55,742 bases of DNA, taken from assembly GCA_020630295.1 (NCBI GenBank), contig JAHDBR010000011.1:1-55742 (forward strand), given 5' to 3'. The notes beneath the pieces are model-generated. The model ran no database searches. It saw nothing but the letters and a program-made list of their open reading frames with translations, and was not told the DNA's origin. The stretch is from Sphingomonadaceae bacterium. Lineage in GTDB: Bacteria; Pseudomonadota; Alphaproteobacteria; Sphingomonadales; Sphingomonadaceae. Both the position numbers and the translations under genes were made by a program. Positions 3,836-23,787 of the stretch are shown piece by piece (position 1 is the stretch's first letter; each line of letters starts with the position of its first letter).

Positions 3836-4384
3836 TTACTGCTCGCTCCAGTCGCAGCGCCGCAGCTCCCATTTCAGTTCATCGCACCAGCCGATATGCG
3901 TTTGGACGCTGCGCCGTAAATGCGCCTTTCGCGTAAAGCCCAGCCGTTCCAGCAGGGCGTTTGACGCAGTGTTCCGCGGATCGGTTTCGGCGGTGACAAG
4001 GTGGAGCTGCTCCGTCCCGAACAGATGCGTGATCATTGCGGCGGCACATTCCCCCGCAATGCCCTGCCCCTGATGCTGTTTGATGGTAATGTAGCCAATC
4101 TCGGCAATGCCCTGCGCCACTGGCACAGCGACCAGACGCGCGGCGGCGGCTCCGTCAGTGCGGTCCGTTGCAATCCATGTCCGTCCGTCCCAATCAGGGT
4201 CAAACAGCCACGCTTCGAGTTCTTTAATGGTCGCAAATGCGGCGCGGGTCAGATACCGGCACTGCGCCTCGTCAGACAGGGTTGGAAACAGCGCGGCTGC
4301 ATCTGCAGGCTCAATCGGGCGGAGTACAAACCGCTCCGTATTAAGAACCGGCGTGGCCGGATCTGTGCTGCCGGTCAGGCTCAC
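3836..4384 (-). CDS. GNAT family N-acetyltransferase (RimJ/RimL-like)
   Basis: About 182 residues from a GTG at 4384 whose last two bases enter the TGA stop of the LysR gene (GTGA overlap), with GGGAAAGA just ahead. This coupling is more credible than an ATG further upstream inside the LysR gene. The sequence starts LNTERFVLRPIEPADAAAL, the usual opening of Acetyltransf_3/RimJ-type enzymes. It has the acetyl-CoA loop region (QHQGQGIAGECAAAM) and ends with the NTASNALLERLGF helix typical of this group. It transfers acetyl from acetyl-CoA to an amine; the substrate is unknown. Translational coupling to the LysR gene suggests a shared regulon. Confidence 0.85.
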   Translation of the reverse strand: MSLTGSTDPATPVLNTERFVLRPIEPADAAALFPTLSDEAQCRYLTRAAFATIKELEAWLFDPDWDGRTWIATDRTDGAAAARLVAVPVAQGIAEIGYITIKQHQGQGIAGECAAAMITHLFGTEQLHLVTAETDPRNTASNALLERLGFTRKAHLRRSVQTHIGWCDELKWELRRCDWSEQ

Positions 4385-5172
4385 TCTTTCCCGAGGAAGG
4401 CAACCAGCGCCTTGACCTTCTTCTGCCGCCATTGCGGCGGAGGCGCGATCAGCCAATAGGCGCGGCGCCCCTCATCCGGCCCTTCCAGAATAGTCAGGCG
4501 CCCGGCATCGACCGCTTCGGACACAAGCAGATACGGCAAAATTGCCTTGCCCATGCCCGCCATCGCGCTGCTTAAAGCTTGTCCCGCATTGCCAACCTCA
4601 ACCGTGGGTGACGCTGATTCCGGCAGCGGAGCGCCCGGCCAGTCGATCCATTCATCCGGCGCATCCTCGGTAGAAACAACTACGCGCCGCGCGGGCGCAA
4701 GTTCAACCCCGTTCAACTCTCCCGGACCATCTACCAAGCGGACAGCAAGATCGAGGTTAGCCTCGGTAAAATCGGCATTCTCGTCTTCTACCAGATGGTA
4801 ACGGATTTCCGGATTCTCCTTCCGGAATGCCGATAGCCGCGGAGCCAGCCATTGCGCATAGAACTCGCGCGGAGCAGCAATTGTATAACTGTCGCTCGCC
4901 TGTCCCGCCTGCATGGCCTGCACGCTTTCCTCGAACTTCAAGAAGCCTTCGCGAAGCGCATCAAGACCGGCACAGCCTTCCGGAGTCAGTTCCAACCCCT
5001 TGCTGGTCCGGCGGAACAATACAGTCCCCAGATGATCTTCAAGAGCGCGTATTTGCTGGCCGACGGCGGCGGGCGTAACCGCAAGCTCGTCTGCCGCGCG
5101 GGTAAAGCTTAAATGCCGGGCGGCGGCATCATATACGCGCAAGGCGTTCAAAGGCAGGTGCGTGCGTTTCAT
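4381..5172 (-). CDS. LysR-family transcriptional regulator (GcvA-like)
   Basis: 263 residues. The N-terminal winged HTH is of the GcvA/AmpR type (LPLNALRVYDAAARHLSFTRAADEL, AVTPAAVGQQIRALEDHLG). A substrate-binding domain of two alpha/beta lobes follows from about residue 90. It is somewhat short for a LysR protein (usually about 290-310). The stop overlaps the GTG of the GNAT gene. Regulated genes may be the GNAT gene or the GTPase pair upstream; neither is shown. Family sure, role unknown. Confidence 0.88.
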   Translation of the reverse strand: MKRTHLPLNALRVYDAAARHLSFTRAADELAVTPAAVGQQIRALEDHLGTVLFRRTSKGLELTPEGCAGLDALREGFLKFEESVQAMQAGQASDSYTIAAPREFYAQWLAPRLSAFRKENPEIRYHLVEDENADFTEANLDLAVRLVDGPGELNGVELAPARRVVVSTEDAPDEWIDWPGAPLPESASPTVEVGNAGQALSSAMAGMGKAILPYLLVSEAVDAGRLTILEGPDEGRRAYWLIAPPPQWRQKKVKALVAFLGKE

Positions 5173-5220
5173 CGGAGGGGCGGTTTAAGCGAGCCCGCGC
5201 TGCAGCGCAACATAATGCTG

Positions 5221-6723
5221 TCACCCGCGTTCCGGATTGGCACGTAAATCGCCCAGCATCGGCCCGGCCTGCGGATACAGACGCACCAACAGCGATCTAC
5301 CCGCATTCTGCAATAGTGCTGCAATATCGCGTTCCAAACCGGCGCGATCCGCGGATTTGGCGCGGTTATATATGCCTTCCAGTTCGGCCTGATTGTCGGC
5401 CAGCACAGCATCGACATGATCCCGCCAGTATATCGGGTGCTCGCCTTCTTCCCACTCGCCGCGGCCTCTACCGAAATGAGCAACCGCCAGATAGCGCAGC
5501 AGAGATGCGCCGACAAAGCGTGTGAAGAATTCTGACGACCATCGGACGTAATTGCCATCATCGCCCATGGCCAGATTGACCCCTTTGGCCAGCCCGCCCG
5601 CACCTAGCGCGCCCAGCACACCGCCAACAATCATGCCCCCGCCCAGTGTCAGGCCGCCAGCCATCACATCCGCGGCGATGCCGGTGATGGCGCCGGACAT
5701 AATACCGCCCAAAAGCGCGGAAATACCTTCAGGTGCCTTTTTGGTCTGGCTGTAATCATCCCCGATTCTTTCCAGTACCTTTACCGTCGCGCTACCGGAG
5801 AGATTATGCAGACGGATTAGCGCATCGGTGGAATCGCGTGTTCCATTGGCTAATCGCTCGGACAAAGCGGTCATCGCTGTATTTGCGGCAATCGCCTCTT
5901 TCTTGCCGCCCGCTATCGCGTCGGTCAGTCCGCGCCGCCAGTCGCCCTCTCCCATCTTTTCACGGTCTTGCAGAGTTTCCGCCAAGGGGACCGCCAGCGC
6001 CGCCATTGATGCAGTGAAACGTTCCCGGTTCATCTCTGCCCAGCGCGCCGAAAGCCGGTCCATGGCAGGAGTTTTCCCGGCGGGAAGCAGAGGCTTCACC
6101 TGCTCCAGCAAGACTCCTTCCTGAACCCAGCATCGGGCAAACGCATCCAGCGGCAGCGCGCCTGCTACTTCTGCATATTGCGCAACCAGACGCGACCAGC
6201 GCTCCGTCTCCTTATCCGCATCCTGTTTGGGCGGCCCCATCTGGTTCAGTAGCAACAGCACAGGTTTACCCACCCAAGCCAGCACCTCCATCTCCAGATC
6301 GACATAGGCAGCGGCGGCCGGATCTTCTGCTGAATTTACCAGATACAGGATCACATCGGCCTGATCGCGGGCGTTCTGGACGGCTTGTTGGCTGGACCAT
6401 AATGGCCGTTCGCGCCAACGGTCCCAAACTTGCGTCAAAAACCAGCCGATTGGGTTGCCTGACATACGCAGCCGGTCAAGCAGGCGGGCCGTATCGCCAA
6501 AGCCGGGTGTGTCCCATAGCATCAGCGTATCATCGCCCTGCTGCACCAGCACGTGCCCGCTCGACAAATCAGTCACGTGGGCGGCATCGCGAACTTCGCC
6601 AATATCCTTGCCCAGCAGGGTTCTGGCCAATGTGGTTTTGCCCGCATTGGTGTGGCTTATGAGGCTGAGATTGATCGTGGTGCCGCCAGTGGCGGCCGGG
6701 GAAAGATCGGTTTCACTGTCCAT
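5221..6723 (-). CDS. Dynamin/Era-like GTPase with DUF3482 domain
   Basis: About 500 residues from ATG 6723, with AGGG about 8 bases ahead; longer readings would run into the DUF2868 gene. The N-terminal G domain shows a P-loop variant (ISHTNAGKTTL, with Ser in place of the first Gly), the G3 motif WDTPGFGDT, and a degenerate G4 (LLNQMG rather than NKxD). A helical region and a glycine-rich hydrophobic stretch (about residues 330-390, including GGLTLGGGMIVGGVLGALG) follow, suggesting membrane insertion like the DUF3482 family. It is 10 bases downstream of the DUF2868 gene, its usual companion. The pair's biological role is not established; membrane remodelling or stress is a guess. Confidence 0.85.
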   Translation of the reverse strand: MDSETDLSPAATGGTTINLSLISHTNAGKTTLARTLLGKDIGEVRDAAHVTDLSSGHVLVQQGDDTLMLWDTPGFGDTARLLDRLRMSGNPIGWFLTQVWDRWRERPLWSSQQAVQNARDQADVILYLVNSAEDPAAAAYVDLEMEVLAWVGKPVLLLLNQMGPPKQDADKETERWSRLVAQYAEVAGALPLDAFARCWVQEGVLLEQVKPLLPAGKTPAMDRLSARWAEMNRERFTASMAALAVPLAETLQDREKMGEGDWRRGLTDAIAGGKKEAIAANTAMTALSERLANGTRDSTDALIRLHNLSGSATVKVLERIGDDYSQTKKAPEGISALLGGIMSGAITGIAADVMAGGLTLGGGMIVGGVLGALGAGGLAKGVNLAMGDDGNYVRWSSEFFTRFVGASLLRYLAVAHFGRGRGEWEEGEHPIYWRDHVDAVLADNQAELEGIYNRAKSADRAGLERDIAALLQNAGRSLLVRLYPQAGPMLGDLRANPERG

Positions 6724-23292: not shown

Positions 23293-23549
23293 CCGTTCAC
23301 ATTGCTCACTTTGCGGCTAGCAGCTTTCCCGACAACATAGAAAAATTGGTCTGCCACCGATAATAGCTGTGTAGCTCCTGATCTACTCAAGTCTTCCAGC
23401 CCGTATTCCACGCGCAAGATAAAGCGATGTGGGAAAAGCAAAAATCAGGGCTTGCAATTAAAATCAAACAGACTCAAATTGGACGCAAGATCAGCGGCGA
23501 ACGCGGTCTTGGGCCTCCGGTGAAACGCGGGCTCTGGCTTTCAAGCGCG

Positions 23550-23563
23550 AAAGGAGGTGATCC
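23550..23563 (+). promoter_or_regulatory. Fourteen-base extended Shine-Dalgarno
   Basis: AAAGGAGGTGATCC is perfectly complementary to the conserved 3' end of bacterial 16S rRNA (GGATCACCTCCTTT). GGAGG sits 7 bases ahead of the ATG at 23565. Such a full-length match is far beyond what normal genes in this window use (usually 4-6 bases), so it probably serves a special role. Confidence 0.8.
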
Positions 23564-23564
23564 G

Positions 23565-23621
23565 ATGTCTCATGGTTCAGTAAGAGGGTCGGTAAAGTTC
23601 CACACAAGGCATTATTGGTGA
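23565..23621 (+). CDS. 18-codon mini-gene / leader peptide
   Basis: ATG at 23565, stop at 23619-23621. The peptide is MSHGSVRGSVKFHTRHYW, basic and ending in aromatic residues. It is preceded by the 14-base Shine-Dalgarno and followed within 90 bases by a strong terminator hairpin. The codons for Tyr-Trp and the first base of the stop lie in one arm of a perfect 8-bp hairpin (TTATTGGT 23612-23619 with ACCAATAA 23630-23637). This looks like a leader-peptide attenuator or a small dual-function RNA. It is not rich in Leu, Ile or Val, so classical ilv attenuation of the downstream ilvE is doubtful. Confidence 0.6.
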   Translation: MSHGSVRGSVKFHTRHYW

Positions 23622-23667
23622 GCATTTGAACCAATAAAGGCATTTGTGAGCGGCACTTTCGGCCGCT
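23612..23667 (+). promoter_or_regulatory. Two tandem hairpins after the mini-ORF
   Basis: Hairpin 1 pairs TTATTGGT (23612-23619) with ACCAATAA (23630-23637) and would melt when a ribosome reaches the Tyr-Trp codons. Hairpin 2 pairs AGCGGC (23649-23654) with GCCGCT (23662-23667). Both precede the terminator stem, as in attenuation leaders. Confidence 0.55.
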
Positions 23668-23676
23668 GACCATGTT

Positions 23677-23711
23677 AAGGGCGGTACCTCCTACGTGCGA
23701 GGGCCGCCCTT
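23677..23711 (+). terminator. Terminator hairpin with anti-Shine-Dalgarno loop
   Basis: AAGGGCGG (23677-23684) pairs perfectly with CCGCCCTT (23704-23711), with an inner CCTC/GAGG stem (23687-23690 with 23699-23702). It is followed by a moderately T-rich run (CTCATTTGGCCTTTTC). The loop side carries ACCTCCT, complementary to the AGGAGGT core of the mini-gene's own Shine-Dalgarno. Confidence 0.65.
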
Positions 23712-23787
23712 CTCATTTGGCCTTTTCATTTGCCTCTTTCATTCGACCCTTCACTTTAGCTGAGTGCATAGGCGAAAATTAAACACC

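What the first reader, a model, noticed from the sequence alone, without database searches (positions are those of the whole stretch)
23550..23711. Mini-gene with a 14-base perfect anti-anti-SD and a self-complementary terminator loop
AAAGGAGGTGATCC matches the whole 3' end of 16S rRNA and precedes an 18-codon frame ending in Tyr-Trp. Two hairpins and a terminator follow; the first hairpin covers the last codons. The terminator loop contains ACCTCCT, complementary to the SD core. This could be a leader-peptide attenuator, a dual-function small RNA, or a ribosome-titrating element, and it is not a feature I can match to a known family.
Basis: partly seen in the sequence, partly recalled or inferred. 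Interest (0 to 1): 0.65.

Follow-up and report, generated by a model that had tools for sequence, protein, structure and literature searches.

The report
Class-wide translated small RNA, CC2171 family
A short gene here makes a small RNA with the strongest ribosome-binding site in the genome and a tiny reading frame that runs up one side of a long hairpin and stops near its tip; it belongs to an ancient, almost unstudied RNA family found across the Alphaproteobacteria.

Summary
GAAAGGAGGTGATCC (23549-23563) occurs once in this genome; in relatives the other exact copies are 16S 3' ends. It precedes an 18-codon frame, two hairpins and a terminator. The element is a diverged full-length match to Rfam RF01867 (CC2171, a Caulobacter sRNA; 37.2 bits, E 1e-6, gathering score 75). 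Relatives were found only in Alphaproteobacteria, without a conserved neighbour gene, so it is a stand-alone RNA gene, not an attenuator. In 110 non-redundant relatives the frame always closes at 14-31 codons; other frames do not. Codons 3-8 pair with the strand before the terminator, and this pairing covaries (own strands beat swapped ones in 106 of 111). The stop codon is enriched in apical loops (46 of 110, background below 0.2). The peptide shows no purifying selection: the act of translation, not the product, appears conserved. The Sphingomonadales promoter is CTTG-N16-GANTC (16 of 21), suggesting GcrA/CcrM control. The terminator anti-SD occurs in only 5 of 29 relatives. Best mechanism, inferred: a ribosome-gated small RNA. 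Its targets and output are unknown.

The parts
23451..23475 (+). Putative promoter: CTTG (23451-23454), 16 bases, GACTC (23471-23475), a GANTC methylation site
   Evidence: CTTG-N16-GANTC in 16 of 21 non-redundant Sphingomonadales relatives, middle base C, T or A; GANTC background 0.13 per 120 bases; site confirmed in own genome
23487..23548 (+). Probable 5' leader of the transcript; start inferred from the promoter, about +/-4 bases
   Evidence: inference from promoter position; leader aligns among close genera and is shorter or different elsewhere
23549..23563 (+). Extended Shine-Dalgarno, perfect 15-base complement of the free 3' tail of 16S rRNA
   Evidence: only exact copy in the genome; relatives' 16S ends match; identical in 97 of 110 relatives
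23565..23621 (+). 18-codon reading frame with stop TGA at 23619-23621
   Evidence: frame closure at 14-31 codons in 110 of 110 relatives; no protein-level constraint
23571..23581 (+). P1 5' strand CATGGTTCAGT, codons 3 to 6
   Evidence: covaries with 23665-23674
23603..23648 (+). P2 hairpin; the stop codon overlaps its apical loop
   Evidence: fold; stop in an apical loop in 16 of 21 Sphingomonadales
23649..23667 (+). P3 hairpin AGCGGC...GCCGCT, which competes with the top of P1
   Evidence: fold; conserved in alignment
23665..23674 (+). P1 3' strand GCTGACCATG
   Evidence: covariation
23677..23718 (+). Intrinsic terminator, stem AAGGGCGG/CCGCCCTT with T-rich tail; contains ACCTCCT at 23686-23692
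   Evidence: sequence, fold, counterparts in relatives

Best explanation
A stand-alone small RNA gene of the CC2171 family, read from its own promoter (probably GcrA/CcrM-dependent) and ending at its own terminator. Its extended Shine-Dalgarno captures a 30S subunit by pairing with the whole free 3' tail of 16S rRNA. The ribosome translates an 18-26-codon frame that forms the 5' strand of a long hairpin, opens that hairpin from its base, and stops near its tip. The RNA would thus switch between a closed form (no ribosome) and an open form (ribosome loaded) whose freed 3' strand can pair elsewhere or be cut. Shown here: match to the family model, class-wide spread, the 15-base complement, frame closure, covariation of P1, enrichment of the stop codon in apical loops, no protein-level selection, no conserved neighbour, and the promoter motif. 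Inferred: transcription and translation in this species, the switching, GcrA control, and any target. The confidence is for the whole statement; identity alone is about 0.9.
For: RF01867 full-length match bridged by class-wide loci at 40-90 bits; only alphaproteobacterial hits in 249 genomes of the phylum; unique 15-base SD; frame closes at 14-31 codons in 110 of 110 relatives against 32% and 26% in the other frames, and stop in apical loops 46 of 110 against background 0.17-0.20 and 16 of 106 for other frames; P1 own pairing better than swapped in 106 of 111; pN/pS 1.18 and 0.77; varied neighbours; CTTG-N16-GANTC and a GcrA gene in the genome.
Against: No expression, ribosome or target data were examined. 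Outside Sphingomonadales the stop is in a predicted apical loop in only 30 of 89. The match is far below the Rfam gathering score. GANTC is missing in many non-Sphingomonadales members. Predicted SD accessibility is moderate (median about 0.4), and in this lineage a fold that masks the SD is predicted.
Confidence: 0.45

Rival explanations
1. Ribosome decoy: the RNA binds 30S subunits very tightly through the 15-base complement and holds them in front of a strong hairpin, lowering initiation on other mRNAs. The frame only lets the ribosome leave.
For: The SD is the longest possible and nearly invariant, and unique in the genome; the hairpin starts at codon 3.
Against: A decoy needs no precise frame length, stop position or long covarying stem, and it would have to be very abundant; abundance is unknown here.
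Confidence: 0.2
2. A small mRNA whose micropeptide (Met-Ser-His...) is the functional product.
For: Strong SD and start codon; codon 2 is nearly always Ser, through several synonymous codons; short functional leader peptides are known in Sinorhizobium (PMC10117765).
Against: pN/pS is not below that of the other frames in Sphingomonadales and barely so elsewhere. The peptide differs completely between orders, and residues 3-8 change together with their pairing strand.
Confidence: 0.12
3. A base-pairing sRNA in which the frame is incidental and the SD-like stretch pairs with something else or is masked.
For: Own terminator; catalogued as a non-coding sRNA; SD-masking fold predicted in this lineage.
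Against: Frame closure and stop placement are not expected without translation; no conserved unpaired seed other than the SD was seen.
Confidence: 0.14
4. A leader-peptide attenuator of ilvE, tyrA or pheA.
For: ilvE lies about 150 bases downstream here and follows in many close relatives; aromatic codons at the end of the frame.
Against: ilvE is absent near more distant relatives, neighbours vary in identity and strand, tyrA is divergent, and the Trp codon is not conserved.
Confidence: 0.03

Closest known systems
Rfam RF01867, CC2171 (Caulobacter sRNA)
   Same: Whole-length match with the same order of parts: GAAAGGAGGUGAUCC, start codon, UCUCAU, long-range helix, inner hairpins, terminator.
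   Different: Scores 37 bits against a gathering score of 75; different P1 letters with pairing kept; shorter frame; listed as non-coding, whereas the frame is evidently maintained in the class-wide set.
rnTrpL/peTrpL of Sinorhizobium (dual-function attenuator sRNA)
   Same: Small alphaproteobacterial RNA with a translated short frame and a terminator (PMC10117765).
   Different: rnTrpL is leaderless, lies before trpE and has Trp codons and a functional peptide; this one has an extended SD, no fixed downstream gene and no conserved peptide.
Extended Shine-Dalgarno mRNAs (e.g. Staphylococcus aureus, PMC13009471)
   Same: Pairing with the 16S tail beyond the usual core.
   Different: There described as a general feature of mRNAs; here a single locus per genome inside a conserved structured RNA.

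Membership tests
RF01867 CC2171 sRNA | Full-length match to the covariance model | tested here: met
   positions 1-159 of 159, E 1.2e-6
RF01867 CC2171 sRNA | Score at or above the curated gathering score of 75 bits | tested here: not met
   37.2 bits; so it is filed as a diverged relative, bridged by loci at 40-90 bits
RF01867 CC2171 sRNA | Helix between the start of the frame and the strand before the terminator | tested here: met
   covarying P1, 106 of 111
RF01867 CC2171 sRNA | Expressed as an independent small transcript | not testable with these tools
   a Mesorhizobium homologue has a 215-nt RNA-seq product (PMC5596092); not measured in this species
Leader-peptide attenuator | Conserved regulated gene downstream on the same strand | tested here: not met
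Leader-peptide attenuator | Conserved run of codons for the regulated amino acid | tested here: not met
Dual-function small RNA | Translated reading frame | tested here: inconclusive
   strong comparative support, no ribosome data
Dual-function small RNA | Functional peptide | tested here: inconclusive
   no purifying selection seen
Dual-function small RNA | Base-pairing with target RNAs | not tested
   no target search was made
GcrA/CcrM-dependent promoter | GANTC near the promoter elements, kept across relatives | tested here: met
   CTTG-N16-GANTC in 16 of 21 Sphingomonadales; 36 of 89 elsewhere have a GANTC
GcrA/CcrM-dependent promoter | GcrA present in the genome | tested here: met
GcrA/CcrM-dependent promoter | Loss of expression without GcrA or methylation | not testable with these tools
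   needs an experiment

The most novel reading that the evidence does not exclude
An ancient alphaproteobacterial RNA in which the ribosome itself is the switch: the tightest ribosome-binding site in the genome feeds a peptide-neutral reading frame that is one strand of a hairpin and ends near its tip, so that ribosome supply, perhaps timed to DNA replication through GcrA/CcrM, sets the RNA's fold and activity.
Probability: 0.3. Interest if true: 0.85.

Novelty: new variant of a known kind. Interest (0 to 1): 0.62.

Why it matters
RF01867 is a named but, as far as I could find, functionally unexplained RNA family. These results extend it across the Alphaproteobacteria, indicate that it is translated although its peptide is not conserved, and point to exact mutations that would test the idea in Caulobacter. 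If right, it is a rare case of a reading frame kept for the passage of the ribosome rather than for its product, and it may link ribosome availability to the cell cycle.

Tried and rejected
Misread 16S gene: rejected; the letters after the SD are not 16S, and at Rfam's thresholds only a tRNA is found in the window. Attenuator of tyrA, pheA or ilvE: rejected. Conserved anti-SD in the terminator: rejected as a family feature, 5 of 29, though real as an alternative fold here. Conserved peptide: not supported. Restriction to Sphingomonadales: rejected. Phage origin: only two viral contigs hold the exact pattern. CTTG-N16-GANTCA as a genome-wide promoter class: only weakly more frequent than an off-spacing control (10 against 4 sites), so no claim is made.

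Full report
OBSERVATION. GAAAGGAGGTGATCC is at 23549-23563 and ATG follows at 23565. The frame MSHGSVRGSVKFHTRHYW* ends at 23621; hairpins P2 and P3 and a terminator follow. The segment folds better than dinucleotide shuffles (z -3.2; -4.0 with the leader). The 15-mer occurs once in the 2.4 Mb genome, and the nearest other sites have two mismatches. The assembly lacks a 16S 3' end, but in relatives the 16S ends match the complement exactly; in congener G005 the only other exact copy is its 16S.

IDENTITY. At Rfam's curated thresholds only a tRNA is found in the window. With an E-value threshold the element matches RF01867, Caulobacter sRNA CC2171, over all 159 positions (37.2 bits, E 1.2e-6; gathering score 75). 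Thirty-one of 61 genomes in a relatives search have a match. A pattern of SD, start and UCUCAU finds 33 of 289 genomes of the class, with no hit for the reversed control; 19 of 20 of those and related loci that were scanned score 40-90 bits with RF01867. In 249 genomes of the phylum 57 have a hit, and every listed hit is in the same class; of 14 control genomes only Caulobacter rings. Named carriers include Bosea, Methylobacterium, Microvirga, Kaistia, Brevundimonas and Azospirillum.

STAND-ALONE GENE. ilvE follows in the closer relatives (L001-L020, L059) but not near L021-L029 or in the rest of the class. Across the class the next gene lies on either strand (91 against 63, from a crude gene call) and the neighbours differ. 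With its own promoter and terminator, this argues against an attenuator.

READING FRAME. In 110 non-redundant relatives the frame closes at 14-31 codons every time and at 18-26 codons in 95%; the other two frames do so in 32% and 26% (14-31) and in 15% and 14% (18-26). pN/pS is 1.18 in Sphingomonadales and 0.77 elsewhere, not clearly below the other frames. The frame is kept; the peptide is not. Among 20 covariance-model hits that were not chosen by letters, 19 show the SD core and a start codon.

STRUCTURE. Codons 3-8 pair with the strand just before the terminator (P1). With the 3' strand located only by the terminator, own strands pair at -11.6 kcal/mol on average and swapped strands at -6.8; own is better in 106 of 111. 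Examples: CAUGGU/ACCAUG here, CAUUGUC/GACAAUG in many Rhizobiales, CAUAGU/ACUAUG in L193, AUGAGAUU/AAUCUCAU in L044. The stop codon falls in a predicted apical loop in 16 of 21 Sphingomonadales (background 0.17) and in 30 of 89 others (background 0.20); stops of other frames do so in 16 of 106. So the frame runs along one strand of a long hairpin to near its tip, clearly so in Sphingomonadales and as a tendency elsewhere.

PROMOTER. In Sphingomonadales the upstream region has CTTG, exactly 16 bases, then GANTC in 16 of 21, with the middle base varying; GANTC within 120 bases is seen in 25 of 28 against a background of 0.13. GANTC is the CcrM site, and GcrA acts at methylated GANTC promoters (PMC7987155). 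A GcrA gene is present. In the rest of the class 36 of 89 have a GANTC. This suggests cell-cycle control but does not prove it.

TERMINATOR ANTI-SD. ACCTCCT is in 5 of 29 relatives, and its CCTC belongs to the terminator stem. In this lineage a whole-RNA fold with the SD masked by it is predicted to be more stable by about 6 kcal/mol, so it may tune the element here, but it does not define the family.

LITERATURE. Rfam 15 lists RF01867 among families whose structure was revised with R-scape (PMC11701678). A Mesorhizobium homologue has a 215-nt RNA-seq product (PMC5596092). Schrader et al. state that two earlier Caulobacter ncRNAs are translated, without naming them in the main text (PMC4117421). 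I found no functional study of CC2171, but the original 2008 paper is not held.

MECHANISM. Inferred: the SD captures 30S, translation opens P1 and the 5' strand of P2, and the ribosome leaves near the tip, which gives a ribosome-gated RNA. The decoy, peptide and plain-sRNA rivals remain open.

LIMITS. Many loci were fetched by patterns that fix part of the 5' end, so conservation of those letters is partly by construction; the covariance-model hits and the similarity hits are the less biased sets. Related genomes are over-represented and were thinned only by an 80% identity cut. Gene calls in flanks were crude. No expression data were examined.

Noticed in passing
L204:3865-5320 (IMG/VR contig): A tyrosine-recombinase-like gene (4064-5320, minus strand) ends about 100 bases from a CC2171-type element, which suggests that a prophage may use this RNA gene as its attachment site. 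No second copy was found in the stretch held.
   Followed up: partly
L185, L186, L189, L198, L199: One family of the class (handle f29) has an 18-codon variant whose 3' strand carries CACCTCC or close to it, an anti-SD sequence just before the terminator; it resembles the terminator anti-SD of the window lineage but sits elsewhere.
   Followed up: no
L197 and G072:C1:2921849-2922077; L030: Genome G072 carries two copies, one of the Sphingomonadales letter type and one of the CAUUGUC type found in Rhizobiales; L030 in another relative is also of the latter type. Old paralogy or transfer.
   Followed up: no
L055:1194-1290: A 4.5S (SRP) RNA gene lies just downstream of the element on the same strand in this genome.
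   Followed up: no
window 23487-23548: A leader of about 60 bases with its own predicted small hairpins aligns among the closest genera and is absent or much shorter in others.
   Followed up: no
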